DNA from: Brachionus manjavacas
Lineage: Eukaryota; Rotifera; Eurotatoria; Ploima; Brachionidae
DNA length: 64,000 bases
Direction of reading: 5' to 3'
Assembly (NCBI GenBank): GCA_019054805.1
Contig: JAHQIY010000001.1
Coordinates: 3,982,501-4,046,500, forward strand
Positions 986 to 62,019 of the stretch are shown here, piece by piece. Both the position numbers and the translations under genes were made by a program. Under the pieces are notes generated by a model, which was given only the letters and a program-made list of their open reading frames with translations, made no database searches and was not told the DNA's origin. The first letter of the stretch is position 1. Each line of letters opens with the position of its first letter.

Positions 986-2168
986 ATGGGCTGTATTCAA
1001 TCGTTGAGCGACTCGGACAGATTGGGCGCCACCACTCACCACGGCAAGTCGCGTTCCGAAGCAATAGACAAACAGCTAAAGCTGGACGGCCTACGAGCTG
1101 CAAGCGAGGTCAAATTGTTGCTGTTGGGCGCCGGAGAGTCCGGCAAATCGACCATAGTCAAACAAATGAAGTATGCATTGACAAAATTAAATTTAAAAAA
1201 AAATAAATTTTTTTTAAATTTTATTAATTTTTTAAAATGTTATAATTTTAAAAAAAAAAAGAATAATTCATGAAAAAGGCTACAGTCGGGAAGAGTGTCT
1301 GCAGTACAGACCGATTGTTTTTAGTAACACAATTCAGTCGTTGATCGCGATAATCCGGGCCATGGGTCAGCTCAAGATCGGTCTGGCCGATCCGGAGCGA
1401 GTGGAGGACGCCAAGAAACTGTTCTCGCTGGCCAACACGGTCGAAGACTCGGACAACTTGTCGGCCGAGCTTGTGCAGTGCATGCGCAGGCTCTGGTACG
1501 ACCAGGGTGTCAGAGAATGCTTTGCTCGTTCAAGAGAGTACCAGCTGAACGACTCGGCGGCCTATTACTTGGACTCGCTGGACCGCATATCGGCGCCCAA
1601 CTATGTGCCCACTCAACAGGACGTGCTCCGAACCCGGGTCAAGACCACGGGCATTGTTGAGACCAATTTTAACTATAAAAATTTGAACATAAAAATGCTG
1701 GATGTGGGTGGACAGAGGTCTGAGCGAAAAAAGTGGATTCACTGCTTTGAGGATGTGACTGCTATTATTTTTTGTGTGGCCATGAGCGAGTATGACTTGG
1801 TGCTAGCCGAAGATGACGAAATGAACCGCATGAGAGAGAGCATGAAGCTATTCGAGTCCATATGCAACAACAAATGGTTTGTAAATACTTCAATTATTTT
1901 ATTTCTGAACAAAAAGGACCTTTTTATGGAAAAAATTAAGCATTCGCCGCTGAGTATATGCTTTCCGGAGTACGCCGGTCACAACACCTACGAACATACA
2001 TCTCTTTACATAAAAAGCAAATTCGAAGAGTTGAACAAGTCGCCACAGCACAAGGAAATCTACGTGCACTTTACATGCGCCACTGACACCGAGAATATCA
2101 AGTTTGTGTTCGATTCTGTGACGGACATAATCATAAAAAACAACCTCAAAGACTGTGGTCTTTTTTAG
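986..2168 (+). CDS. GNAI: G-protein alpha subunit, Gi class
   Basis: Two exons, 986-1170 and 1262-2168, joined in phase across a 91-bp GT-AG intron inside the KQMKIIHE motif, give 363 aa. Heterotrimeric G-protein alpha subunit that binds and hydrolyses GTP below seven-helix receptors at the inner plasma membrane. The start at MGC supplies Gly2 for myristoylation and Cys3 for palmitoylation. Visible motifs are the P-loop GAGESGKS, the helical domain, switch [12 protein letters not shown] with its catalytic Arg, switch [18 protein letters not shown], and TCATDT for guanine recognition. The tail [10 protein letters not shown] carries the Cys at -4 that pertussis toxin modifies in Gi proteins, so class Gi is well supported. 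It is slightly longer than the usual ~354 aa because the N-terminal helix holds extra residues (around [14 protein letters not shown]). Exon GC is far above its surroundings. AATAAA occurs at about 2375. Confidence 0.95.
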
Positions 2169-11470: not shown

Positions 11471-11730
11471 ATAAAACAAATTTAAATTGGACATTTAACT
11501 TAAAGGAAATTATTTAAAAATAATAAAAACTGATTTTGATAATAAATATTTAAGAACAAAATTTAAATAAAAATGGTGGGGTTTTTAATTTTTTCTAAGT
11601 TTCAAAAATTTTTTTGTTGAACAAGAAAAACTATGGATTGATTTATTTAACTTTATTCTTGAAATTTTTATTTATTTAACGATTAATTATCGAATTTTTT
11701 TAGATTATCTTCTTATTTTTTGGAATTTTT

Positions 11731-13229
11731 CTAAATTGAATTTAACGAATCTCTGAAATTTTTATTTAAATTTCTAAACAAAATAATTGAATAAGAATTG
11801 GATAAAATATAAAACTGTTCACTAAATTCTAAATAATTTGAGCATATTCGACTAAAATTGAAACAAACATTATCGCTTCCTCTATTAGAAGACATTTTTT
11901 TCACAAATATGTAGAGAGAAACTCCAAAATGGAAAAATTTTAGAGCAAATACGAACAAAAGATTCCAGCAAATTGTAGAATTTATTATTTTTCTAGTTTT
12001 TTCTAAATTTTTTTCTTCATTAGTATCTAGTCTTTTAGCAAGTTTAGCTTTAAACTTTAATTTTAGTCGTAAAGATATCATTATAAAACAATCAATCAAA
12101 ATCAAAGCCAAATATAATAAAAGATCATTCACAGTGAAGTTAATATGAAAGCGGCATAAAAAAAAATGGCTTTCTGATAAAAATACTTAATTTGCTCCGA
12201 AGAATGGAATCCGACTTCACGAAAAATTCTCAGCATAAAAGTATTTTTGTTGGGAAATTCTTCATAGTTTTGGTAATCTATAAAAAAGAAATTTTCATTT
12301 ATTCTGGCGGTGAATAGCTTGTCAATAGATAGAATAATGCTAAAAATTAAAAATAAAGCAATTAAAATTTTTGATTTTTTCTTTTTTGAAATTTTTATTA
12401 AGAACTTTATGCAATTATTATGATTAGCTAGATGACACAGTCTTACCCACGAAATTCCAATAATGGTAATATTAGACCATATTTTCAGTATATTCAATAT
12501 AAATTCCACAAAAATTATGTCAAACAACTGGACATATCTATGTCGCAGAACGTCTGAACAAAATATTCCGTTTACATATACGCATTTGTTTATCAAATGG
12601 ATAGAGTATATCATAGAGTAAATTAAGTTAATTATACTGTTCACTGCCATCAAATTGTTTGCAGTGGACCTTTTAATAGCCTTCATATTTGCTAATACTT
12701 TAAGGTTCATTAAATTAGTAATTATGGTTATGAAACAAATTACAGGTGACACCAAAATGGTAAGAAAATTTAAAATTTCTGAAATATAAATTACGTCTTG
12801 ATCAGTTAGTTCTGGTTTTGCGTAGAAATTTGTTTTTTGATGACACAATTTTGTGATAGAATTAAAAAGTTTGTTTTCCAAAGTAAAATTCATGGGACTA
12901 CTATAATAATTAAGAGACACTCTATGGACTTTAATGAAAATGGCAATATCTTGATTATAATTGCTGTTTCTTAGAAGCATTTTAAAGTGTCTGTGCATTT
13001 ATAATTGGGTGTGTTGATAAATACTAATGTGGAATTTGAAGCGTAGAAATCTTTGAACAAGCAAAAATCTTCATTTGGAAATTGGTAGTTATCAACTATT
13101 CGTATTTGGATGACTCGTAAAAATTTTCTTTATTTAATATAAATTCGTGTAGTGATTTTGAATTTTTATAAAAAAATTCTCTTAAATTTTTTATTGATAA
13201 TTCCAAGTAAGCAAGTCTGTCAAAATTTC
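11731..13229 (-). pseudogene. 3' half of a broken LRR-7TM receptor gene
   Basis: The minus strand encodes the C-terminal two thirds of a receptor paralogous to those at 47240-49495 and 59656-62019. It starts at NFDRLAYLEL (about 13227), then gives QFPNEDFCLFKDFY, the pre-membrane region and all seven membrane segments, ending FSEQFYILSNSYSIILF. At least three frameshifts break it, at about 13115-13130, 12980 and 12145. The open stretches 12998-12129 and 12132-11731 are pieces of one frame, and MHRHFKML at 12998 is not a real start. The first ~260 residues are missing here but are found on the opposite strand at 15231-16015, which ends exactly at the matching residues. It appears to have been broken by an inversion, then decayed. 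A LINE-tail-like motif (CTGAAGGAGCTTA on the minus strand) abuts its 5' limit at about 13240. Confidence 0.8.
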
Positions 13230-15230
13230 AAGGCATAAGCTCCTTCAGAAAGATTTTAGTATTTTAGTAGATTTTTAATTATGTTTTCATTTGTATTTAG
13301 TTTAATATGAATAATAAAATAATGAAAATGTTTATGATCTAAAGTTTAATATAGATTATATGTTATTTTGATAGGGTTAGAAGAAAATGAATTATAGATT
13401 CATGAAAAGTAATTTTGAATGACTAGATAGCAATTACATAATGGAGTTGGTCTATCAATCATACGTGATTCAAATAATAAAAATACAAGTGAATAAATTT
13501 TCTAAATAAAACCTTTAACCGGAAGGTAAAAGAGCGAAAGCTCACTCATTTAAAATAAAAAAATTAACTGTAGAAAGAAATTAATTATTTCATTATTAAA
13601 AAATTATTTCATTGAAATTTCATTAAAATCTCATAAGATTTAAAGAAAAAAAATATTTTTTTAAATTTGAACCTTATTATATCCAATTCAATTTTGAACT
13701 ATTTAATTCCAAAAAATTTAACTGAATGTAATGATTTAATTGTAATATCTCTGAGTGTTACTTTTATTCAACCAAACATTATTAAGCCAAACATTATGCA
13801 AAAACCTATCATGTTATAACAGGAAATAATGTTATCGTCAGTGATAAAGAAATCTTTTAGTAGCAAAATTTGTTATCACTCTGATAACCAAATCGGTAGA
13901 CTCAAGGAAAAAATTATAGAATCTATTCTATATTCAACTTTATTTTTGAATTTTGATTTTTTATTCTAAAAGAGCTTTAGCTCATCAAAAATAACAAATA
14001 AATTAATTAAACAACTTTAATGACAAAAATTATTTTTTCACTACCCAGTCAACCTTATTTTAAAGGATCTTTAAAGAAATTTTAGAGAAATTTGTAGAGT
14101 TTTTTCAGAGGTTATCGTACATTTTTCTCTAGAATATCTTTGAAAATTTCTTTTAAATTTCTCTAAAATATCTTTCAAGTTTCTTCGGTTCGGGCCAAAT
14201 TAAGAGTTATGATGTCTAAACGTTACATTAATATTTTTTTCATTTAAAAATCTAAAAATCAAGAAATGAACAAAAAGTTAAACAATTTCAAGAAAAAATT
14301 AAAAAGAAGAGTTGTTTAAAATTCACAAGTCTTAAGTCAACTCAAAGACTGGCTTGGACATTAATTTCAGTGAGTATGCTTAAAATAGGGTGCCAAAATA
14401 ATTATCAAGAACGACCATTCATCAGTCATGATTGCGGTCTTATAAATTATTTGCCGTTTCAGGGAGTTATTTTGGCGGTAAAGTTTAAGACAAAGCTAAA
14501 ATTAAAGTCCAGGTCCGCAATTTAAAAAATTATTATAAGTTCGGACTTTAACTTGACTTTTTAACTTATGACTTTTTAACAATTATATTAAAAAGAAGAA
14601 AATTTCCTTATTACTTTAATTAAAATTTTGATGTAAATAAAAAATAAACGTCAATTTGAATTGCTAAAAGAAGATTGTATTTCTTTATTTTGAATAAAAT
14701 CTGATGAATTTGAATATTTATCAATTAAAATAATATTTATGAAAAGTTTTTTTTTTTATTTTTTTTTTTAATTCAAATTAAAATAAATTCAAAATTTCTT
14801 TAATTTTTTGTTTATTCGAATTTAATACTGGATAAAAATCTGTTGATTGATTTTAAAAATAAATGTAAATATTGGTCATTTTGCAAAATCTTTAAATTTG
14901 ATTCTTGATCTTTTGAAATAATTTTTAAGAATTCTTGAAATTTAAGATGTTTATTTTATTATTTTCTGTATTAATTGGCTTATCCGATATTTTTTCATTT
15001 TTTTCAGTTGATAATGATATCAAAAAAACATAAATTTATTTCAAAAAAGCAAAATATAAAGAACCGATATAATAGAAGATTAACTATGGCTTTTCTTGCT
15101 GCTTGTTTTATTGATTTATTGAAATTTCGATGAAACCTAGGGGATGCATTTGAATAATAATTAGAAAATTTTCTTTAAATAAATTTGAAATCTTTTATTT
15201 TTTTAAATAATACTAGAAGCTAAAAAAAAC
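13230..15230. other. Non-coding segment with repeats, probably the inverted promoter side of the broken receptor gene
   Basis: No gene. It contains a LINE scrap on the minus strand at about 13425-13480 (GCAATTACATAATGGAGTTGG, also at 58537). A foldback block at about 14066-14185 uses words such as AAAGATATTTTAGAGAAATTT on both strands. A member of the GCCGTT(T/C)CAGG-AGTTATTTTGGCGG repeat family lies at about 14385-14570. The rest is AT-rich. Confidence 0.45.
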
Positions 15231-16015
15231 ATGATTTATTCTCTATTATTTCTGTTCATTAATTTTTGCTATATTAATATTTATATGAGTAATAGAGTGC
15301 CAATAATAAATGAAAATTGTACTAATTTGAAAGTTATAACAACAAGTTATATATTAAGCGGATATTCAGCAGAAGTAAATGTGTTTTTAAATGACAAAAT
15401 GAGTCAAGTCGATTCAGAATGTTTTTATTGGGATAAAAATTACTACATCATAAAAATAAATTGGAATACGAAAAAAGTTTTAGATGAATCATTTAAATTC
15501 ACAAGATTAAAGACTTTTCAAGAATTTGACATTATGTTACAATTTATTGATATCATAGCTTTCAAATTAGATTCAAATCTATTTTTTGAACTATCTAAAA
15601 TTGTAAAATCAAATTCTCTTTCTTTCCACTATTCAAAACTCAATATTTTATCAAATGGTTCTGTTAATTGCATCAACATGCAGACAAAAAAATTGAATTT
15701 TTTTGGAATACTCAAAACTGTCATATTTACATTCACTGTGACATATTCAAATAAAACATGTCCGCTTATATTTTCCAATTCTCAAATTGATTTTATTTAT
15801 TTTTATGACTTATCCGACTCTTTTTTCAAGCAAAATATACTTGGATTTTTTCTGCTAACTATTCTTTAAATAATGTTGTTAAAAGTGTCCATATCTATGG
15901 CTATAAACTTGATTTAGATAAACAAATGTTAAGTGCGGATATATTCAAAAAGATAATTTTTATGTATATTTTTGGACAATTCAAAATAATCGATAGACAA
16001 ATTTTACAAAATTTT
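15231..16015 (+). pseudogene. 5' half of a broken LRR-7TM receptor gene
   Basis: Encodes a signal peptide (MIYSLLFLFINFCYINIY) and an ectodomain closely following that of the receptor at 59656: the block FKLDSNLFFELSKIV, the motif KTCPLIFSNS and the block FFKQNILGF. One frameshift in a T-run at about 15846-15852 ends the open frame at 15869. The other frame continues (SLNNVVKSVHIYGYKLDLDK ... DRQILQNF) to 16015, where similarity stops abruptly. The next residues expected from the paralogues (FD.L.YLEL) begin on the minus strand at 13227. With 11731-13229 it would make a receptor of about 760 aa, matching the paralogues (751 and 787 aa). The half is unlikely to be functional by itself. Confidence 0.8.
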
Positions 16016-16071
16016 TGAACTTTTTGAACAAAACTTCACAATTCTTCATTTCATATGAAACTTTTAAAATC

Positions 16072-43314: not shown

Positions 43315-46300
43315 ATGAACAAAATATTGTTTGGTTTTGTAATGATAGGAGCCAATGTGTCATTTATCTCTTGTTTATTAGAATACAACGATCGATTCTA
43401 TAATAATAAGAGTTACTCGGATTACATAAATGAGAACCACTTTTCAACTAGATACGACTCTATCGTAATTAATAGCAAAAATTTTAATATTTTGCCCAAC
43501 TATATTTTCAATGTGGTTTATTGCAAAAATTTAGATTTGTCCAAGAACCAGATACAATCATTTAACTTAAATACCTTTACGCAAATAAAAAATCTCGAAT
43601 CATTGATTTTAAGTTACAACAAAATAAAATCTGCTCAAAATTTTTATTCAGCCAATTTAACCCAACTTAGGTCTTTGAATTTGGCTTTCAATCAAATCGA
43701 ATTTCTAAATGGAACTTTTTCGGCCGATTTTAAAAATCTAAAATTTCTGGATTTTAACAAAAATCTTATAGATTTTATTCGCCCGGATTCATTTAAAAAC
43801 CTCGTTACCATCGAGTCAATCAATTTATCAAACAACAAATTACTCTTCATACCCTGTGAGACTTTTCACTCTCTGTCAAATCTTAAAACACTCAATCTTG
43901 GTTTCAATAAAATAGAAAATATCTGTCCAGATTCATTTAAGGGACTTGGAAATTTGAAAAACTTGTATCTCACCAACAACAATGTGAAACAATTCAATAC
44001 AAGACTTTTTTCAGAATTGATTTGCATTGAGACTCTAAACATTGGCTATAACAAAGTAAGAGGTCTTGACCCAAAATTACTGCAGAATTCAAGCCAAATG
44101 CGGAAACTCTTCGCTTCTAGTTCACAATTATCATCTTTTAAGCTCATACGACCAATTGCCAAAATTACTTGTCTAATTCTGGAAAAATCATGCATTTCTT
44201 TGATAAGTCCAAATGATTTAAATCACTTGACTGATTTGTTTAAACTTTCATTAAAAAGCTCTAAAATAGAGAATATCCAAGACAGTAGTTTTCGTAATCT
44301 AAAGAGACTCTCAAATCTTAACTTGGATAGGAATAAAATTTTAAATATTTCTAAGTTTACTTTCGAGGGTCTTACATCTCTGGACACATTGAGCGTAAAT
44401 CAAAATATTTTGAGACTAATAGACTCCGAGGCGTTTGTTTGGTTAAAGGAAAATTTGACCAGACTATATCTTAACTCTAACCTTCTGTGTAGAATAGAAA
44501 AACTTCTATTTTCCGGAATGACAAAATTAGAAATATTGGATATAAGTTATAATGAGATAGAATCAATAGAGGTGGGCTCTTTTTCCAATTTGCCATCTCT
44601 CAAAAAATTGCTCATCCAACAAAATAATTTAAAAGCTTTAAATAAATTTGATTTACCAAAATTAACTATTTTGGACTTATCAGACAATTATCTGGAATCT
44701 TTAGCATCAGGCACATTTAAAAAGTGTTCTAGGCTTAAAGAATTATTTTTAGACAAAAATCGGTTGGATCATTTTAGTTCTGAATTGCTGGGAAATTTAA
44801 GTCTCAACTTTCTGGGCTTAAATAAAAATTATATTTTGAATCCGTCAACACTACCAGCAACAAAATTGGAAATTAAGCGCAACAAACTGGAATCGGTCAA
44901 CAATGATTTATTCGCTAAGTCAACAATCATAGACCTAAGTCACAATAAAGTTGTATCTATTACAAATGGGTCTATTTATGGTAATTTTTTAGTCAAGAAA
45001 ATTTATTTGCAATTTAATAAATTAAAAAAAATCGATTTTTTACTAACAGAATTTACTGATCTGGAAACATTGGACTTGCGCGGCAACCTAATCGAAGAGC
45101 TTAAAATTGAAAATTTTAATTATGTTTTAAAATTAAAATATTTGAATTTGTCTTTAAATCCAATTTTGCATATAGAGCCTGATTTTTTTAAAAATTTAGC
45201 TCAAATTAAGTTTATTGATGTCAGTAATTTGTATCTATCAAATCAGCATATCCAAGATATTCTTAATTTGTATCACATAAAAGAAGTGAATTTTGGATAT
45301 CTCAAAAATACTGAATTTAACTTTAGTCAGTTGAAAAAAAAATCACTAAAAAGTATTTATCTGAACAATTTAAATATTGATTATACAGTGGACATAGATT
45401 TTAGAAATTTTCCTTTTTTGGAACTAATCGACGCAAGCTTTACGCGGAACAGATTTTTGGACAACATGGATTTTTATAATCTAGGAATGTTTCGTTCGTT
45501 GGAAATGTCTGGTTGTGGACTTACTTCAAACAATTTGACCAATTTAAATAAATTTAGATTGATTAAGCATTTAAATTTAAGCTTCAACAATATTGGGTGT
45601 TTGAACACGAGCATGTTTGAGGGAATGCAATCACTAGGTGTTTTAGATTTAAGGAATAATCAGATAAAATCAATAGAAGAAAATATTTTTTTTAGTTTTG
45701 CTTTTTTCACTCTCAATTTAGATAATAATTTTATACAAACTCTTCAAGATTTGAAAGTGACCCAATTGAGGACTTTAAAACTGAGGAATAATATAATCAA
45801 ATATATTGACAAGATTGATGAACCATTTTTCAAATGTTTAGAACTCGACTTGGCTTTTAACCAAATCGAAAATGTTTCATTGCATGAAATGATTGATGAT
45901 TACAATCAATTGAGTTTGTTGGATCTGAGCAATAATCGGATTATTCGTCTTGGAAAAGAATTTGTCAGCCATATATTTGAGCTTAAGATTCTTTTTTTGC
46001 ACAACAACCAAATTATAGATATTGATGAGGACTCGTTTGTTAGTTTGACCATGTTGGAAAATCTAAACTTGGCAAACAATTCTATCAAAAATTTGCCGAA
46101 TGAAATTTTCAAAGAGCTTATTTCTTTGAAATATTTGAATTTGAGTCATAATAAATTAGAGATTTTGTCAGAAAGCATCTTTAAAAATTTGTTCAATGTG
46201 TTGAATATTGATTTAGGATCAAATCGTTTAAAAAAAATAGAAAATTTTGCTTTTAAAAATTTTAATTTACTCGAAAGTTTAAATTTAGAAAATAATCAAG

Positions 46301-46596
46301 AATTATATTTGAAAGAAAATTCACTTTACGGTCTTCAGTCAATTCAATTTATTAATATGTCTTATAGAACAGCAAAAGAATTCAAGCAAACGATTCTGAA
46401 TTCTCTGATGGTTTATCAAGAAAAAGTGGTTAATGGAATTATCTACTACAAGAGTCTAAATATACGTTTCAATGATCATGACCCTGATTGTGAATTGATC
46501 TTAAATTTTATTAGACACAATATTCATTTAAATTTAATGTTTTTATATGAATATGAAGAATTTATTAAAAATTGTAACAAAATGTTTTTATATTAA
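43315..46596 (+). CDS. Large secreted leucine-rich-repeat protein
   Basis: Single exon, 1093 aa. A signal peptide (NKILFGFVMIGANVSFISC) is followed by about 35-40 LRRs of the ~24-residue extracellular type. The pattern is LxxLxLxxNxIxxIxxxxFxxL (for example LEILDISYNEIESIEVGSF and LRSLNLAFNQIEFLNGTF), running from about residue 60 to 1030. The tail carries two late Cys and no membrane segment, TIR domain or GPI signal, so the protein should be secreted or pericellular. The repeat style recalls Toll-type ectodomains and chaoptin-like adhesion proteins, but no specific orthologue is recognised. It is encoded without introns in a neighbourhood where conserved genes have many, like the 7TM receptors nearby. 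Its 3' end faces the receptor at 47240-49495. Function unknown: adhesion, ligand binding or partnership with the receptors are guesses. Confidence 0.88.
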   Translation: MNKILFGFVMIGANVSFISCLLEYNDRFYNNKSYSDYINENHFSTRYDSIVINSKNFNILPNYIFNVVYCKNLDLSKNQIQSFNLNTFTQIKNLESLILSYNKIKSAQNFYSANLTQLRSLNLAFNQIEFLNGTFSADFKNLKFLDFNKNLIDFIRPDSFKNLVTIESINLSNNKLLFIPCETFHSLSNLKTLNLGFNKIENICPDSFKGLGNLKNLYLTNNNVKQFNTRLFSELICIETLNIGYNKVRGLDPKLLQNSSQMRKLFASSSQLSSFKLIRPIAKITCLILEKSCISLISPNDLNHLTDLFKLSLKSSKIENIQDSSFRNLKRLSNLNLDRNKILNISKFTFEGLTSLDTLSVNQNILRLIDSEAFVWLKENLTRLYLNSNLLCRIEKLLFSGMTKLEILDISYNEIESIEVGSFSNLPSLKKLLIQQNNLKALNKFDLPKLTILDLSDNYLESLASGTFKKCSRLKELFLDKNRLDHFSSELLGNLSLNFLGLNKNYILNPSTLPATKLEIKRNKLESVNNDLFAKSTIIDLSHNKVVSITNGSIYGNFLVKKIYLQFNKLKKIDFLLTEFTDLETLDLRGNLIEELKIENFNYVLKLKYLNLSLNPILHIEPDFFKNLAQIKFIDVSNLYLSNQHIQDILNLYHIKEVNFGYLKNTEFNFSQLKKKSLKSIYLNNLNIDYTVDIDFRNFPFLELIDASFTRNRFLDNMDFYNLGMFRSLEMSGCGLTSNNLTNLNKFRLIKHLNLSFNNIGCLNTSMFEGMQSLGVLDLRNNQIKSIEENIFFSFAFFTLNLDNNFIQTLQDLKVTQLRTLKLRNNIIKYIDKIDEPFFKCLELDLAFNQIENVSLHEMIDDYNQLSLLDLSNNRIIRLGKEFVSHIFELKILFLHNNQIIDIDEDSFVSLTMLENLNLANNSIKNLPNEIFKELISLKYLNLSHNKLEILSESIFKNLFNVLNIDLGSNRLKKIENFAFKNFNLLESLNLENNQELYLKENSLYGLQSIQFINMSYRTAKEFKQTILNSLMVYQEKVVNGIIYYKSLNIRFNDHDPDCELILNFIRHNIHLNLMFLYEYEEFIKNCNKMFLY

Positions 46597-47239: not shown

Positions 47240-49495
47240 TTAAAGACTTTTTTGGATGAAGTTGAAAATTTCATCAAAAGATATCTTAAAATCTTTGTTT
47301 AAATTTAGGAATAAAATAATCGAATAAGCATTTGATAAAATGTAAAATTGTTCACTAAATTCTAAATAATTTGAGCAAACCCTACTATAATACAAGCAGA
47401 CATTTGAATCATTTAAATTCGAAAATAATTTTTTCAAAAAAACATAAAATGAGACTCCGAAGTGAGCTATTTTTAAACTAAAAACAATCATTAGATTCAA
47501 ACAAACTGTAACATAAACTTTTATTTTTACGACTTTTATTTCACGGTTTTCTTTTAATTTCAGTTTTAATGCCAGACTTTTCTTATCTTTAATTGTATTA
47601 CGAAAAAAATAAAGAATTGAAATGTCTATTATAAAAAGCAATAAATACACCAAAAGATCATTTAGAAGAAAATTGCAGACAAAAAATGCATAAAAAATAG
47701 TGGCTTTTTTTCCAAAATAATAAATACCTTCCAAAGAATGTTGTCCAACACCACGAAAATTGTTAATCAAAATAGTATTTTTGTTCGGAAATTCCTCATA
47801 GTTACTTTCGTCCATTACAAAAAACTGCTGATTCACTCGAACAACAAACAGTTTATCCATAGAAATAATAAAGCTGAACACAAGAAAGCATGTTACAAAT
47901 ATTTTTGACTTTTTATCTTCTTGAAATTTGCTTATTGTTTTAACCCAGGGTTTGTCTTTGATCAATCGACTAAGTCTCAGCCATGATATACAAATGATTG
48001 ACGCATTCGACCATATCTTTAATACACTCAATAAAAATTCAACAAAAATAATGTCGAATAGCTGAACAGATCTTTCTCGCAGAATGGCTGAACAAAATAT
48101 TCCGTTTACAAAAACACATTTGTTGACCAAATGAAAGCAATAGATTACAGAATAGACCAAGTTGATTACGCTATTGATCATCATTAGTTTATTTGAAGCG
48201 GAAAACTTGACTTTTTGAATGTTTGATAGAATTTTAAGGTTCATCAAATTGGTGATGATTGCGACCAGACAAAATATTGGTGTCATGAAGATGGTTAGAA
48301 AATTTAACTTTTCCGAATCATAAATCAAATCTGAAGCTGAGTATGTTGAATATTTTACCAAAAATGAAGAATTACATTTATTCAATTTGTTTTCAATTTT
48401 ACACTCTTCAACTTTTAGTGTATCAATGCACTCTTTGGAAAATCTTTGAAACAAAAACAAGTCTGCTGAACTAGACAAATTTAGTAGAAGAAATAAAGTA
48501 CATGAACAATGAAAATAATTTTTTGTCAATTCTACCTTTATCTTTTTTAAGTAATAAAGACTTTTAAAATAGCACAAATCTTTATCTGGGAATTCATATT
48601 TTTGATTGTAAATTTTTAGCGATTTTAATTTGCTTTCATTATTAGAATCTATTTTTTTTAATGTCACTCGATTAAAATGAATAAAATCAATCAAATTGTC
48701 TAATTTTATATTTATTGATTCAAGCTTTTTCAATTTATCGATTGAAGTTATTCTAATTTCACCTTTCAATTCTAATTCATACACATCTTCAAATACATTC
48801 GAATCCAAAATGCTTTCAGACAAATCAATTCTGTAGGCTTTAACTTCTAACTTTTGAATAGATGAATTGATTTTACTATTTAATGTTGAAAAACCAAGTA
48901 AATTTCTTTTCAAAAAGGTATTTGTTAGACCATGGATCTGAAGCAAATAAATGTTTGAGTTTGCAAAAATGAGTGGACAAGTTTTTTCAAAATAGTGAAC
49001 ACTTAATCCGAACCCAACTGTTGCTCCTCTAAAAAAAAAAGAAAAATTCTCTGTCCCATTTATAAAACAATTTTCGGTCCCATTTGATAAAATTTTAAAC
49101 TCCGAATAAAAGAAATAGATAAGGTGGATAATTATTTTTTTATTTAGACGAAAAAAAAATCGAGAATTTAAATCAAATGAACTAATTTTATAAAATTGTA
49201 AACAAATTGTTCTATCTGAATCGATTCGAGGCTCTTGAAATTTGAACGAACTGTCTAATTTAAAAGCTTTATTTGATAAAATATTAAGAATATAATTGTT
49301 TGAATTTAGATAAAGACAATTGAAATTTATGCCATTGTTTGACTCATAATATAAATTAACATGTAATAAATAACCTTGATTAATTAAAATAGTTTCTTTT
49401 ACAGTTTTAAAATTACTACAAGTTTTGTTTGATTCACAAATTCCAGGAAATAACCCAGTTATCAAAATGAATAAAATAAACTTTAACACTACCAT
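47240..49495 (-). CDS. Orphan seven-transmembrane receptor with LRR-like ectodomain (copy A)
   Basis: Single exon, 751 aa. A signal peptide is followed by a ~370-residue ectodomain with degenerate leucine-rich pattern (VYELELKGEIRITSIDKLKK) and the family motif KTCPLIFANS. A Cys cluster just before the membrane part resembles an LRR C-terminal cap (HCSCTLFLLL ... CIDTLKVEEC). Seven hydrophobic segments follow at about residues 399-423, 435-459, 478-508, 531-550, 601-630, 660-686 and 715-732. TM1 has an Asn-rich TNLMN. The DRY motif is replaced by SWLRLS, and TM7 has LSNAYSIILF in place of NPxxY. The shape resembles LRR-containing class A GPCRs, but no known ligand class is recognised. Residues ~406-534 are almost identical at DNA level to copy B. 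A Gi-type G protein lies in the same window, but no functional link is implied by that. Confidence 0.85.
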   Translation of the reverse strand: MVVLKFILFILITGLFPGICESNKTCSNFKTVKETILINQGYLLHVNLYYESNNGINFNCLYLNSNNYILNILSNKAFKLDSSFKFQEPRIDSDRTICLQFYKISSFDLNSRFFFRLNKKIIIHLIYFFYSEFKILSNGTENCFINGTENFSFFFRGATVGFGLSVHYFEKTCPLIFANSNIYLLQIHGLTNTFLKRNLLGFSTLNSKINSSIQKLEVKAYRIDLSESILDSNVFEDVYELELKGEIRITSIDKLKKLESINIKLDNLIDFIHFNRVTLKKIDSNNESKLKSLKIYNQKYEFPDKDLCYFKSLYYLKKIKVELTKNYFHCSCTLFLLLNLSSSADLFLFQRFSKECIDTLKVEECKIENKLNKCNSSFLVKYSTYSASDLIYDSEKLNFLTIFMTPIFCLVAIITNLMNLKILSNIQKVKFSASNKLMMINSVINLVYSVIYCFHLVNKCVFVNGIFCSAILRERSVQLFDIIFVEFLLSVLKIWSNASIICISWLRLSRLIKDKPWVKTISKFQEDKKSKIFVTCFLVFSFIISMDKLFVVRVNQQFFVMDESNYEEFPNKNTILINNFRGVGQHSLEGIYYFGKKATIFYAFFVCNFLLNDLLVYLLLFIIDISILYFFRNTIKDKKSLALKLKLKENREIKVVKIKVYVTVCLNLMIVFSLKIAHFGVSFYVFLKKLFSNLNDSNVCLYYSRVCSNYLEFSEQFYILSNAYSIILFLNLNKDFKISFDEIFNFIQKSL

Positions 49496-50899: not shown

Positions 50900-52100
50900 G
50901 TATCAAATTGTATAATCTTGAATAAACTATTCGTTCCAGTAACTTTCCAAAGCAACTCGTTATGCTAATTGGTCTATAATTTAAAGGGTCTAGTACAGTA
51001 GAGGTCTTTTTTTGGATCATAGTAATGTTCGAAGTTTTCCACGCTTTCGGGACCTTACCTTCTCTAAGAGATAAATTAAAAAGTTCTATGATTTATATTA
51101 ATGAATTTCTACGTAATCTTATTAAAATAAAATTATGTATTTGGTCAGGTCCTGATGCCGCTTCATTTTTCAATCTTTTTAGAGCCATAATTAATTCATT
51201 TTAGCAAATTGGATCATTTAAATTACACAAATCATAATTTCTAAATAAATCAAAGTTAGAATTAAGTATTTCGAATTCTTTCTCAGTATCAATTAAATCA
51301 GAAATAGGACTAAATATTGAAGATAAGAGTTCTTCAAGGCATTTTCCCTTTTCTTCATTAGTTTTGAATTCCTTGTCATTTAAAAACAAATTTGGGATTA
51401 AATTTGACCCTTTTTTTGATCTAAATTTATTAATTTTTTTCCAAAAATGTCTACTTGTCAGTGGGTTTTTTCCCATTTTCTCAATAAAATCAAACCAATT
51501 TTGATTCCAGAATTTTTTTAAAGAGGTCTTTAACTCAAATGTAAGTTGATTTTATTTTTGCTTGAGCTTTTGACAGCGAGTTTTTTGAAAGTTTCTTCTT
51601 ATTGCTTTCTTTAATCAGAATAACAATGTTCAGGGGAAGACTGGTTTTGTAGATTTTCTGAGAAAGATAAGGAATGCTTTTATGAGAAGCAGAAATGAAT
51701 TTTTCTATAATTTTATCATTTAGTTGATCTATAGTGATGGAAATTTCAGGGATAATAACTATTTGAGAATTTAAGATCTCGCTAAATAATACCCAGTTCG
51801 TTTTCTTATAGTTAAATTTTTTAGCTGCTGTTTTTTTTTCTAATTGATGGCCCATAGAAATTGATGCTTCGATTGGGAAATAGTCACTAGTCAAGTCTTG
51901 ACTATTTAAGACATTAAAGTCGATAATTTTGTCAATGAGTGAAGATGAAACTAAAAAAAGTAATTTCAAAGTAATTCTTATTAAAAATATTGAAAGTAGG
52001 ACGCTTATCATTTACTACTGAAAAGTCTAACTCTTTGATTATTCTTTCCAACATTATACCGTTTTCATTTTCCCCTATGCAGCCATTAAAAATTTAATTA
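50900..52100 (-). mobile_element. Partial LINE: endonuclease end, linker and start of reverse transcriptase
   Basis: Read on the minus strand. NENGIMLERIIKELDF (about 52020-52075) leads, through a frameshift, to LTSDYFPIEASISMG near 51850-51900, the SDH-type end of an APE endonuclease. The linker HFWKKINKFRSKKGSN follows at 51476-51201. The first reverse-transcriptase block comes next: ASGPDQIHNFIL, VPKAWKTSNITMIQKK and LNYRPISITSCFGKLLERIV, near 50930-51190. The catalytic YADD part is missing. The 51300-51840 segment is nearly identical to the plus-strand copy at 55505-56045. Confidence 0.8.
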
Positions 52101-54399: not shown

Positions 54400-56740
54400 T
54401 ATCGTTATCACGTGATTTAAAAGCTATATTTCAAATGGAAAGTTAGCTAGCGAACCCAAGAGAAATTCAACGAAATTTTAAGAAACAGTCAAACTGAATC
54501 TTAAAAAGTTGGTTAAACCTTTTAATCACAAAAAAATCTTTAAGCAACTCCAATGTGTACTCAGCGAATCGGAATTTAAAGAAATTACAGCAATCTACAA
54601 TTTCTCTTCGAGAAAAATATCGATTATAAAGTTCGATCACGCCTTTACCGCATCGAAAGTCTTTTAATGTTCAATCGAAATTAATGGTGAATTAAATAAG
54701 ATTGAGGATGCAAAAAAATTGCCGGTGACAAGAAGAAACTCGATATTTAGGTTTCACTATCTCCCTGAAGATTTCAAAAAGAAATTACTTCGATACTTTT
54801 TCGATGCTATTAAAATCAATGGTCTCAAAGCTGAACAAATTTTAGAAGAAATATACAAAAAAGTCATGTTAAAAACGGTGTGAAACGAGTAAAATTTTCC
54901 TTACCGAAAGAATCAGAACGATTATTTAAAAATTTACTGGTCCAACAGTTCTATACGATTTAAAGTGCGTAATTTCAATTGCTGGACAGAAACAAAGTTC
55001 CTTTTTTGTAATGGTGAAGGGCACAACATTGCCAGATGTCCTGTCAAGAACCAAGCTTGCAAAAACTGTAATCAAAAAAGACATTTGACACGGAAGTGCT
55101 CTTTAGCTTAGAGGCTTAAATCGATTCAACGAGCAAAAATCGACTAGCGAACTAGCGATTCAAGAAGAATAAGAAGAAATTTCTCAAATAGAAACAAACA
55201 TGTTTGACATGATAACCAAAACTCCACAGTTCCCAAATAAAGAGTAAACAAATGAAGAATCCCATTTGTCGTCACAGTCTTGTTAAAAAAAGTATGCATA
55301 CTCCAGTTCTATCACTTAATCTTAATTAAGATTCTGATCAAATAAACTGCTCAAATTTTGAAAAATTAAGGGATCAATCTATTAAGTCAAAAAAATACCT
55401 TGTTACCAATGTTCCAACAAGTAAGCAAATCAAGCGCGTTTCAGAATCCGACAATTCACAAACAGCTGAATCGAAAAAACTAAAAGATCAAACTAATGAA
55501 AAGTAAGAAAAAAAAACAGCAGCTAAAAAATTTAACTATAAGAAAACGAACTGGGTATTATTTAGCGAGATCTTAAATTCTCAAATAGTTATTATCCCTG
55601 AAATTTCCATCACTATAGATCAACTAAATGATAAAATTATAGAAAAATTCATTTCTGCTTCTCATAAAAGCATTCCTAATCTTTCTCAGAAAATCTACAA
55701 AACCAGTCTTCCCCTGAACATTGTTTTTCTGATTAAAGAAAGCAATAAGAAGAAACTTTCAAAAAACTCGCTGTCAAAAGCTCAAGCAAAAATAAAATCA
55801 ACTTACATTTGAGTTAAAGACCTCTTTAAAAAAATTCTGGAATCAAAATTGGTTTGATTTTATTGAGAAAATGGGAAAAAACCCACTGACAAGTAGACAT
55901 TTTGGGAAAAAATTAATAAATTTAGATCAAAAAAAGGGTCAAATTTAATCCCAAATTTGTTTTTAAATGACAAGGAATTCAAAACTAATGAAGAAAAGGG
56001 AAAATGCCTTGAAGAACTCTTATCTTCAATATTTAGTCCTATTTCTGATTTTAATTGATTAAAGAACGCTGCAACAAGAAGAAGGCTAAATATTAGTAAA
56101 ATATTGTCAAACAAAAAATGGGGTCTCAATCAAAACACACTAGGAAATTTATACAAATTTGTAGTCGGATCAATTTTAGACTATTCTTTTCCTTACTTAA
56201 ATTCATGTTCTGAAAATAATATCAAAAAACTACAAGCAATTCAAAATACAGCAGTAAAATCTATCCTTAAGTTAAAATATGATACTCCTTCCAACATCGT
56301 GCATAAAGAAGCTTTTAATAAACTTAAATTACTAACAGTCTCAAATCGGCTTTTTGAGTTGAGTGAGAGATATGTTGGGACAGAACTGAGTCATTCTATT
56401 CCATTGGTTGTAAGACTGGTGGAGGAATACAATAAGTTTTCAAATCGAGATATATTGAATGCCCAACTTAATTGTGTAATTGCTACCTCACTATTCTTCC
56501 TTTTTTCCTGAAACCTGAACTATGTAAACATGTGCCACATGAAACAATCTTTTCCAATTTATGTCTTTTCGACTTTAATTTTTTTTAGCTTATTTACTCT
56601 ATTTTGATTCTTTTTTTTTATCTAATTTTTTTAACTTTAATTTTATTTTTATTTTATTTTTTTATTTTATTTTTAATTTATTCTGAAGGAGCTTTAGCTC
56701 GGTACAGAAAATAAATAAATAAAATAAATAATAAATAAAT
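54400..56740 (+). mobile_element. LINE copy with ORF1 zinc knuckles, internal deletion and complete 3' end
   Basis: ORF1 remains are broken by stops. They include two CCHC-type knuckles near 55005-55110 (CNGEGHNIARCPVKNQ, then ACKNCNQKRHLTRKC) and an acidic/basic end near 55385-55505. The sequence then jumps straight to the endonuclease end (NYKKTNWVLFSEILNSQ, from 55530) and the linker. After a second deletion at about 56050 it continues with the end of the reverse-transcriptase ORF (KWGLNQNTLGNLYKFVVGS ... FPYLNSCSENNIKKLQAIQN, 56104-56511). The 3' end is CTGAAGGAGCTTTAGCTCGG plus TACAG and AAATAAAT repeats (56683-56740). Zinc-knuckle ORF1 with an APE endonuclease suggests a jockey/CR1-group element. 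Defective. Confidence 0.8.
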
Positions 56741-59655: not shown

Positions 59656-62019
59656 ATGTATTTAGAGAACAAAATTTTAATTTCGTTAATTTTAGGAATT
59701 TTTTCCATGATGAAAATAAATGGCACAAAACCGTATTTGGATGATAGTTCATGTGAACCAATAAATGCAAAAATAAAAATTTTGGATGATAAAACGATTA
59801 GTTTTTATTTTTCAATAGTTATATCTAATTTTAATTATTTTAAACCATTTGATCTCAAATGTATTAATTTAGAAAATTATATATATTCCCTGAATTTTAT
59901 ACCAAATAAAAAAATTATATTTGATCAATCAATTAAGTTTAGGATGCCCAAGGCAAAACAAAAAAATTCTATAGAATTAAAATTTGCTAAAATAAATGCG
60001 TTTGATCTAAATTCAAATTTATTTTTAAATTTTGAAAATTTAGTCGATATATATTCGATCGAATTTTACTACTCAGAATTAAATATTATTTTCAATGGGT
60101 CACACGTTTGTCCCACCAACGGATCCCAAGACATAATTTTTTTCCAAAAAATTTCAAAACTGGGATTCGGATTTTCAGTACGCTATTCAAGAAAAACATG
60201 TCCACTGATATTTTCCAAATCTAGAATTTATTTTCTTCAGTTTTACGGTTTGTCCAATACATTTTTAAAAAGAAACCTTCTTGGATTTATAACCCTAAAC
60301 AACTCGATTAACAGTAAAATTAGACATCTTTATTTTCGTTCGTATATGTCGGATTTGGACAATGAATTATTGAGTCGACAAGTTTTTCAGAGCTGTGTCT
60401 ATTTGTATCTTCATGGATCATTTAAACTAGTCAAAAAAGATTTTCTTAATAAATTTGACAAACTTGTTTATTTGGAATTATTCATTGAAAATTTTAAAAA
60501 ATTTATTTACAGCAATTTTAATACATTGAGAGAATTTACTACTAATAGAGAAAATACAACTCGAATCATTCAGTTGAAAGTGCCAGAAGATTACCAATTT
60601 CCAAATGAAGATTTTTGTTTATTCAAAGATTTCTACAATTCTAATTCAACATTTATTTTCATTAATACAAACGCGATTAAATGCACCAACACATTAAAAA
60701 TGCTTACCAGTAATAGTGTTTTTAGTGAGAGAATTCTTAATTTTATTGAAAAATATAGAATCACTTTAAGTTTAAAAAGTTGTTCATTTGATCAAATTTC
60801 TGAAAAATTTATTTTCGATTTAATTTTAATAAATTGCCATGAGCCCAAAAGTTATCAAAAAAAATCCAAAATGTCCTATACAGATTTGATATTTCTCTCG
60901 GAAGTACTAAATTTTTCAACTATTATTTTTACGCCAATATTTTGTCTGGTCGCAATCATCACCAATTTGATGAACCTTAAAATTCTATCAAACATTCAAA
61001 AAGTCAAGTTTTCCGCTTCAAATAAACTAATGATGATCAATAGCGTAATCAACTTGGTCTATTCTGTAATCTATTGCTTTCATTTGGTCAACAAATGTGT
61101 TTTTGTAAACGGAATATTTTGTTCAGCCATTCTGCGAGAAAGATCTGTTCAGCTATTCGACATTATTTTTGTTGAATTTTTATTGAGTGTATTAAAGATA
61201 TGGTCGAATGCGTCAATCATTTGTATATCATGGCTGAGACTTAGTCTATTGATCAAAGACAAACCCTGGGTTAAAACAATAAGCAAATTTCAAGAAGATA
61301 AAAAGTCAAAAATATTTGTAATATGCTTCTTTGTGTTAAGCGTTATTATTTCTATGGATAAATTGTTTGTTGTTCGGGTGAACGAGCAGTATTTTGTAAT
61401 TGACGAAACTGACTATGAGGAATTCCCGAACAAAAATAGTTTCATAAGTATTCTTTATAGAGACGTAAGCCTAAATCAGAATTTTAAAGGAATAGTATTT
61501 TCTGGTACAATTTCTTATATTTTTTATATATTTTATTTTGCCAATTTTATTCTAAATGATTTTTTAGTTTACCTAATGATTTTTGTACTAGATGCAATAA
61601 TGTTGTATTTTTTAAAGCAGCATATTGAATCAAAGAAAAAGTTGAAGAAAAAATGTCAAGTTGATGATAAAGCCAAGGAATTACTTGAAAATTTCGAATC
61701 TAGAATCTCGAGCACTGTCATAATAAATCTAATTTTTATATTTTTGTTTAAATCGTTACACTTTTCGATAAATTTGTTTATTCTTTTCAAAAAATTACTT
61801 TCAAATAAGCCAGACAAACTGAACATTTGCTTTTATTATAGCCGTATTTGTTCAAATATTCTTGAGTTTAGCGAATTGTTTTTTTTAATTCCAAATACCT
61901 ATACAATTTTACTCTTTTGTAATCTCAACAAAAATTTTAAATTATCATTTGAAAAAATTTTCTTTGGAAAGCCAATTTCGAATGCTTCTTTAAACAAAAA
62001 AGTTGAAAACAAACAATAA
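59656..62019 (+). CDS. Orphan seven-transmembrane receptor with LRR-like ectodomain (copy B)
   Basis: Single exon, 787 aa, the same architecture as copy A. A signal peptide (ILISLILGIFSMMKINGT) is followed by an ectodomain of about 390 residues with FDLNSNLFLNFENLV, KTCPLIFSKSRIYFLQFYG and FLKRNLLGF. The pre-membrane Cys region is CLFKDFYNSNSTF ... CTNTLKML ... CSFD. Seven hydrophobic segments begin at about residue 419 (FSTIIFTPIFCLVAIITNLM). TM7 is FSELFFLIPNTYTILLF, so the NPxxY-like site reads PNTYT. The DRY position again reads SWLRLS. Outside the TM1-TM4 tract, similarity to copy A is moderate. The 3' end has a ~25-residue tail rich in Lys/Asn. The pseudogene halves at 15231 and 13229 are closer to this copy in the Cys region. 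Confidence 0.85.
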   Translation: MYLENKILISLILGIFSMMKINGTKPYLDDSSCEPINAKIKILDDKTISFYFSIVISNFNYFKPFDLKCINLENYIYSLNFIPNKKIIFDQSIKFRMPKAKQKNSIELKFAKINAFDLNSNLFLNFENLVDIYSIEFYYSELNIIFNGSHVCPTNGSQDIIFFQKISKLGFGFSVRYSRKTCPLIFSKSRIYFLQFYGLSNTFLKRNLLGFITLNNSINSKIRHLYFRSYMSDLDNELLSRQVFQSCVYLYLHGSFKLVKKDFLNKFDKLVYLELFIENFKKFIYSNFNTLREFTTNRENTTRIIQLKVPEDYQFPNEDFCLFKDFYNSNSTFIFINTNAIKCTNTLKMLTSNSVFSERILNFIEKYRITLSLKSCSFDQISEKFIFDLILINCHEPKSYQKKSKMSYTDLIFLSEVLNFSTIIFTPIFCLVAIITNLMNLKILSNIQKVKFSASNKLMMINSVINLVYSVIYCFHLVNKCVFVNGIFCSAILRERSVQLFDIIFVEFLLSVLKIWSNASIICISWLRLSLLIKDKPWVKTISKFQEDKKSKIFVICFFVLSVIISMDKLFVVRVNEQYFVIDETDYEEFPNKNSFISILYRDVSLNQNFKGIVFSGTISYIFYIFYFANFILNDFLVYLMIFVLDAIMLYFLKQHIESKKKLKKKCQVDDKAKELLENFESRISSTVIINLIFIFLFKSLHFSINLFILFKKLLSNKPDKLNICFYYSRICSNILEFSELFFLIPNTYTILLFCNLNKNFKLSFEKIFFGKPISNASLNKKVENKQ
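60934..61321 (+). repeat. 388-bp tract nearly identical to 47893-48280 (reverse)
   Basis: I compared this stretch base by base with the reverse complement of 47893-48280. It differs at one visible position (CTTAGTCTATTG here, CTTAGTCGATTG there). Similarity falls sharply on both sides. It covers TM1 to the start of TM4 of the two receptors. Confidence 0.9.

What the first reader, a model, noticed from the sequence alone, without database searches (positions are those of the whole stretch)
60934..61321. 388-bp near-identical tract shared by two divergent receptor genes: recent gene conversion
Receptor copies A (47240-49495, minus) and B (59656-62019, plus) are only moderately similar in ectodomain and TM5-TM7. 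Over 388 bp (47893-48280 against 60934-61321) I found a single differing base, including silent sites. The tract covers TM1 to the start of TM4. Abrupt edges and perfect silent-site identity inside old paralogues are the mark of ectopic gene conversion between inverted copies about 11 kb apart. It would homogenise the receptor core while ligand-facing parts diverge.
Basis: seen in the sequence. Interest (0 to 1): 0.8.

Follow-up and report, generated by a model that had tools for sequence, protein, structure and literature searches.

The report
Rotifer receptor genes swapping their core
In what looks like a Brachionus-type rotifer, five neighbouring membrane-receptor genes share a virtually identical middle piece although two of the types are old, very different genes, best explained by recent copying of DNA between genes, and the same thing appears to have happened separately in a second rotifer sequence.

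Summary
A (47893-48280, minus) and B (60934-61321) differ at 1 of 388 bases. Silent differences are 0 of 81 sites inside; outside pS is 0.65-0.69, near saturation. None of 2000 shuffles reproduces the run.

Three corrections. (1) The tract lies in five genes within about 123 kb: A, B, and E, C, D beyond the window. A, E, C, D are young paralogues; B is old. (2) In B the tract is 492-505 bp: A and E carry private changes past 388, and E matches B at 428-491. B is a mosaic, C/D-like first, E-like at its 3' end. It runs from mid TM1 into the TM4-TM5 loop. (3) It is not a one-off: in another record a B-type and an A-type protein are identical over B residues 479-594 but 32% in the ectodomain.

Best reading: recurrent interlocus gene conversion homogenising the 7TM core of a GPCR-like family with an LRR-like ectodomain. 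Donor direction is not settled. Without reads, polishing could inflate the identity, but would not create the double edges. Closest parallel: mammalian TLR1/TLR6. New member of a known kind.

The parts
59656..62019 (+). Receptor gene B, single open frame, 787 aa, B subfamily
   Evidence: flank tree groups B with P0003 (99/98) and both with P0004 (100/99)
47240..49495 (-). Receptor gene A, single open frame, 751 aa, A subfamily
   Evidence: flank tree groups A with E and C (100/100)
60934..61321 (+). 388-bp tract in B as reported, 1 difference from A, 0 from C
47893..48280 (-). 388-bp tract in A
60934..61438 (+). Full converted tract in B: 3' limit between 61425 (last E-type site) and 61438 (the base before the first B-only site); codes B residues 427-594, mid TM1 into the TM4-TM5 loop
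   Evidence: Variable-site table; edges printed; helices from the model
61362..61425 (+). E-like 3' part of the B tract (offsets 428-491): B carries the E allele at all 8 sites where E and C differ; A has it only at 428
47872..47892 (-). Stretch of A just past the 388-bp limit (offsets 388-408): changes private to A at 395, 396, 408, its own base at 404, and a base shared with E at 388; the reason the A-B tract seems to end there

Best explanation
Recurrent interlocus (ectopic) gene conversion among five linked receptor genes has kept the segment from mid TM1 into the TM4-TM5 loop nearly identical, while the ectodomain and TM5-TM7 of the A and B subfamilies have diverged to near saturation. 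Shown: the double-edged identity, silent-site identity, core/flank tree conflict, mosaic 3' end of the B tract, and a second case at protein level. Inferred: repair of a break in one copy using an inverted or direct paralogue as template; heteroduplex rejection or selection placing the edges where the subfamilies start to differ; for the 3' part, E or an E-like allele as source (the part shared with B lies inside a longer stretch, about 402 to 600, in which E differs from A, C and D); and a benefit from a shared signalling core.
For: Five copies. Silent differences in the tract are 0 or 1 of about 81 in all 10 pairs; upstream and beyond 504, pS is 0.63-0.70 for B against A, E, C and 0.05-0.16 among A, E, C. 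Fisher p (7 of 10 pairs tested): AB 7e-34, CB 1e-33, EB 2e-31, AC 7e-5, AE 3e-4. Shuffles: 0 of 2000 in 7 of 10 pairs, namely the four with B and A with E, C, D. Flank tree rejects A+C+E+B as one clade (AU 6e-8); core tree has A+B+E+C at 100/99 and rejects B+P0003 (AU 7e-7). Second case: P0003 (B-type) and P0008 (A-type) are identical at B residues 479-594 but 32% in the ectodomain and 45% from residue 600 on; core tree 99/96. Silent sites of the segment are near saturation against C4a, C8, C6 (pS 0.65, 0.85, 0.75 with A).
Against: No reads or second haplotype were available. C-D shows no excess (994 and 1413 of 2000 shuffles reach it; silent sites p=0.087), E-C is weak (p=0.059; 10 and 1 of 2000), and E-D is reached 49 and 7 times. 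Direction is unresolved and the signs disagree: the core tree of 19 proteins puts the tract with A-types P0007, P0009, P0008/P0003 (88/87); a tree of TM1-2 alone (48 columns) puts it with the B-type P0004 (85/78), and neither grouping is rejected (AU p 0.169 with P0004, 0.352 with the A-types). TM1-2 of the tract is closer to P0004 (0.67) than to P0007, P0009, P0018 (0.62, 0.56, 0.46). E is not a clean donor: it differs from B at 86, 313, 342, 388 and 402-404. The second case is protein only; that P0003 and P0008 lie on one contig is inferred from equal contig length (20395) and source.
Confidence: 0.9

Rival explanations
1. Assembly or polishing artefact: reads from one copy overwrote the others, so the tract in B (or A) is not real.
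For: No reads were seen; short-read polishing can homogenise segments that are already nearly identical (general knowledge). The copies lie within about 123 kb on one contig.
Against: B has B-type sequence on both sides with one unbroken 787-codon frame; polishing needs prior near-identity, so it should not make a 500-bp tract inside flanks of about 60% identity. Copies keep private bases: E at 86 and 342, D at 255 and 343; C and B share 313. A second record shows the same kind of event with a different 5' edge. Exact zero could still be partly inflated.
Confidence: 0.05
2. Strong purifying selection (protein plus silent sites, for example an overlapping element) keeps the segment identical without any exchange.
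For: The core is strongly conserved at protein level: 15 of the 27 invariant columns of alignment A1 lie between B residues 437 and 576.
Against: Silent sites of the same segment are near saturation between A and three paralogues of the same genome (pS 0.65-0.85). Core trees put the copies of one genome together rather than B with its flank sister P0003. Sharp edges.
Confidence: 0.02
3. One single old transfer followed by duplication of A, E, C, D, with no continuing exchange.
For: A, E, C, D are young duplicates of one another, so four of the five copies could share the tract by descent.
Against: The tract has 0-1 silent differences where A-E and A-C flanks have pS 0.115-0.163, so it is younger than those duplications. 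B combines a base shared only with C (313), a C/D base (388) and E alleles (429-491), which points to more than one exchange or a mosaic, unsampled donor.
Confidence: 0.15
4. cDNA-mediated conversion: a reverse-transcribed A-type transcript served as template. It is a sub-case of the best explanation. The genes are single-exon, so DNA and cDNA templates look alike.
For: Long frames without introns in A, B, E, C and in the paralogues C4a, C8, C6, C4b.
Against: Signs such as polyA or target-site duplication were not looked for; linked copies within about 123 kb favour a DNA template.
Confidence: 0.05

Closest known systems
Gene conversion between mammalian TLR1 and TLR6 (Kruithof et al. 2007, PMC2077338; abstract and 12 of 29 found passages seen)
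   Same: Two linked LRR-ectodomain receptor paralogues in which one block, including the transmembrane part, is homogenised within species while the N-terminal part diverges; independent events in several species with near-identical borders.
   Different: Single-pass Toll receptors in nine mammals; here a 7TM-like family, five copies in one genome plus one pair in another record, the latter at protein level only. Here everything after the tract (TM5-TM7) diverges; in TLR1/6 the last quarter of the TIR domain does.
Concerted evolution of the mate recognition gene mmr-b in the Brachionus plicatilis complex (PMC3495898; 9 found passages seen)
   Same: Same genus-level group (if our identification holds), multicopy gene homogenised within genomes, low silent divergence.
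   Different: mmr-b: near-identical tandem repeats inside a gene, female surface glycoprotein; here a segment shared by old, divergent receptor genes at separate loci.
Gene conversion in vertebrate chemoreceptor families such as V1R and TAS2R (search listing only)
   Same: 7TM receptor gene families; the listed papers hold the term gene conversion.
   Different: Not read here; families without a large LRR-like ectodomain (recalled).

Membership tests
Interlocus gene conversion tract | Identity much above the surrounding level, silent sites included, with limits on both sides | tested here: met
Interlocus gene conversion tract | Paralogue trees of tract and flanks conflict | tested here: met
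   (AU 6e-8 and 7e-7; D, P0014 and P0015 left out)
Interlocus gene conversion tract | Non-reciprocal: donor unchanged, recipient changed | tested here: inconclusive
   Direction not resolved
Interlocus gene conversion tract | Present in raw reads at both loci | not testable with these tools
   No reads
TLR1/TLR6-type recurrent core homogenisation | Independent events in more than one species | tested here: met
   P0003/P0008, protein level only, species of that record not named
TLR1/TLR6-type recurrent core homogenisation | Borders at the same place in different species | tested here: inconclusive
   3' border at B residue 594 in both cases, 5' borders differ (identity runs start at 426 and 479); residue 594 closes a conserved motif, so the shared border may only mark where the subfamilies begin to differ
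G protein-coupled receptor | Seven membrane helices | tested here: met
   Model of B has seven long helices after the ectodomain (408-450, 454-482, 496-532, 549-571, 618-667, 671-715, 729-748); mean pLDDT 70.5, so medium confidence; the TM assignment is mine, no membrane predictor was run
G protein-coupled receptor | Match to a GPCR profile | tested here: inconclusive
   None of the 15 members of A1, A and B among them, matches a GPCR family; of 10 further relatives scanned one, P0030 (26% to P0005, E 9e-7), passes 7TM_GPCR_Srw, 30.1 bits against cut-off 22.2
LGR-like LRR receptor | LRR ectodomain | tested here: inconclusive

The most novel reading that the evidence does not exclude
Core exchange is a standing feature of this rotifer receptor family: in lineage after lineage the TM1-to-TM4/5-loop block is copied between A-type and B-type receptors, with the 3' border fixed at the same codon, so that receptors for different ligands keep one interchangeable signalling or dimer core, as in TLR1/TLR6.
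Probability: 0.35. Interest if true: 0.65.

Novelty: new member of a known kind. Interest (0 to 1): 0.5.

Why it matters
It gives a natural experiment in which parts of one protein evolve by different rules: shared by copying in the middle, diverging at both ends. If the same block is exchanged in many rotifers, one can ask which signalling partner or dimer contact demands it. It also warns that orthology calls made from the 7TM core of this family would mislead: core and flanks give conflicting trees. None of 15 members matched a GPCR or LRR family of Pfam.

Tried and rejected
Chance and silent-site constraint were rejected. Direction of transfer: not resolved. In a first reading (note) I took all changes at 388-408 as private to A; on recount 402 and 403 are private to E, and at 404 both A and E differ; the report uses the recount. 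A family-wide count in this genome by protein search was not obtained: the genome search did not answer in 12 attempts. Only the DNA search (10 matches, 5 at 99-100%) and the loci fetched stand for the genome. Comparison of the model with solved folds was not possible. Rfam: no match in the window at gathering threshold. Literature: I saw no paper on this receptor family in the listings (open-licence PMC only; one search listed 20 of 22 papers, 6 of 7, 20 of 36), judged by titles and abstract openings; no paper held all five terms. DNA for P0003 and P0008 was not sought, since no collection on hand was expected to hold it.

Rows dropped: trees left out D (broken frame), P0014 and P0015 (partial), so 19 of 22 proteins; one search also left out P0010-P0013 (15 rows). 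P0018 and P0019 were found later and are in the alignment only. P0016 and P0017 and the distant hits P0020-P0034 were not aligned. Fisher tests covered 7 of 10 pairs, C-D for the upstream part only. The regression used 265 of 276 pairs; the 10 pairs among the five copies and P0003-P0008 were kept out of the fit; pairs are not independent, so its z values are only a ranking.

Full report
What was checked. A and B are single open frames of 751 and 787 codons. The window lies at 3,982,501-4,046,500 of contig C1 of a 114-Mb genome in 61 contigs. Of 15 relatives found with B, the two that bear an organism name are Brachionus calyciflorus proteins, 44% and 30% identical to B, so the source is most likely a Brachionus-like monogonont rotifer other than that species (inference).

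Five copies, not two. A DNA search of the whole genome found 10 matches, five of them at 99-100% over all 388 bases: A, B, and three copies beyond the window on the same contig: E (C1:4,050,460, minus), C (C1:4,142,236, plus), D (C1:4,153,219, plus). A, E, C and D are young paralogues (91.6-98.8% over 2.4-4.6 kb), while B aligns with them at 87-88% over only 712-736 bp, tract included. E and C are intact frames of 749 and 748 codons; D stops after 607, its C-terminal part continuing in another frame.

Silent sites. In the tract the ten pairs show 0 or 1 silent differences in about 81 sites. Upstream and beyond offset 504, B against A, E and C has pS 0.63-0.70; among A, E and C pS is 0.05-0.16. 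The stretch 388-504 is more diverged among A, E and C (pS 0.19-0.32) than their other flanks. Fisher tests of tract against the rest, 7 of 10 pairs: AB p=7e-34, EB 2e-31, CB 1e-33, AC 7e-5, AE 3e-4; EC 0.059 and CD 0.087 (upstream only) are not significant. Column shuffles (2000 each, longest exact and one-mismatch run): never reached for the four B pairs and for A with E, C and D; EC 10 and 1 times, ED 49 and 7, CD 994 and 1413. So B against the rest is beyond doubt, A against E, C, D strong, E-C and E-D weak, and C-D not distinguishable from plain recent duplication.

True extent. The variable-site table shows B-only differences up to offset -1 and none from 0 to 504. B equals C from 0 to 418 (exact run 419). 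At 388-408 A and E carry changes (A alone at 395, 396, 408; E alone at 402, 403; both at 404; A and E share one at 388), while B equals C and D. At 428-491 B has the E allele at all 8 sites where E and C differ (A shares it at 428 only). At 503 B has T as in A; the first B-only base is at 505. The tract in B is therefore 60934 to between 61425 and 61438, and a mosaic: C/D-like in its first 400-odd bases and E-like from 428. On the B model (mean pLDDT 70.5) with long helices at 408-450, 454-482, 496-532, 549-571, 618-667, 671-715 and 729-748, taken here as TM1-TM7, residues 427-594 run from mid TM1 into the TM4-TM5 loop, which is modelled poorly (573-616 under 50).

Tree conflict. Flank columns put B with P0003 (99/98), these with P0004 (100/99), and A with E and C (100/100); A+C+E+B as one clade is rejected (AU 6e-8). 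Core columns put A, B, E and C together (100/99) and reject B+P0003 (AU 7e-7) (19 of 22 proteins). Silent sites of the segment are near saturation between A and paralogues C4a, C8, C6 (pS 0.65, 0.85, 0.75), so it is not frozen at silent sites.

A second case. P0003 (B-type) and P0008 (A-type), each from one contig of length 20,395 in the same source and so probably the same contig, are identical at B residues 479-594 but 32% in the ectodomain, 44% at 427-474 and 45% from residue 600 on. The core tree joins them at 99/96. Of 276 pairs of 24 proteins, P0003-P0008 (z 5.3) and the four B pairs (z 3.9-4.0) stand farthest above the trend of core against ectodomain identity; the next pair has z 3.0. 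The identity runs start at 479 and 426 and both end at residue 594 (for the window genome the end is that of B against E). Residue 594 ends a conserved motif (EEFPNKN, read), after which the subfamilies differ, so the shared border may follow from homology alone.

Direction. E differs from A, C and D over a stretch from about 402 to 600, and the part shared with B (428-491) lies inside it, which suggests E, or an allele like it, as source of that part; but E differs from B at 402-404, so it cannot have given the whole tract. Trees do not decide: the 19-protein core tree sets the tract with A-types (88/87); the tree of TM1-2 alone sets it with the B-type P0004 (85/78), and holding it with P0004 (p=0.169) or with the A-types (p=0.352) is not rejected. 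In the second case the shared core is closer to the A-types P0009, P0007 and P0018 (0.78, 0.76, 0.72) than to the B-type P0004 (0.70), weakly in favour of A-type to B-type.

What the genes are. No Pfam GPCR or LRR match for any of the 15 proteins of alignment A1. The profile of A1 finds LGR4 and other LRR proteins at E 0.09 and worse for the ectodomain, and neuromedin-U receptor 2 at E 0.45 for profile positions 613-755. A distant relative, P0030, passes 7TM_GPCR_Srw. The family is best described as a 7TM, possibly Srw-like family with an LRR-like ectodomain; ligand and coupling are unknown.

Against known work. TLR1/TLR6 show the same design in nine mammals, with independent conversions and conserved borders (PMC2077338, abstract and passages). 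In Brachionus, concerted evolution is described for mmr-b (PMC3495898, passages). I saw no paper on this receptor family in the listings. The finding is therefore real, a new member of a known kind, with the second case as its most interesting part.

Noticed in passing
window 11719-13245 (minus) and 15231-16042 (plus): A broken copy of a third subfamily (54-72% to P0005): N-terminal part on the plus strand, the rest on the minus strand with frame changes, as if split by an inversion.
   Followed up: partly
G000:C1:4148941-4150072: Truncated copy between C and D holding only ectodomain sequence (P0001 residues 1-367, in two frames).
   Followed up: no
window 51288-51841 and 55506-56059: Inverted repeat, 99.1% identical over 555 bp, between A and B; copies at about 90% near C1:4,146,000-4,147,000.
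   Followed up: no
window 43315-46596 (plus): 1093-aa protein with 13 LRR_8 stretches beside gene A.
   Followed up: no
offsets 388-408 of the tract in A (window 47872-47892) and in E: Both A and E carry private changes packed into about 14 bases (A 395, 396, 408; E 402, 403; both 404), and E stays divergent to about 600; possibly conversions from unsampled paralogues.
   Followed up: partly
window 1341-2168 (plus): Open frame of 275 codons matching profile positions 70-333 of the G-protein alpha subunit.
   Followed up: no
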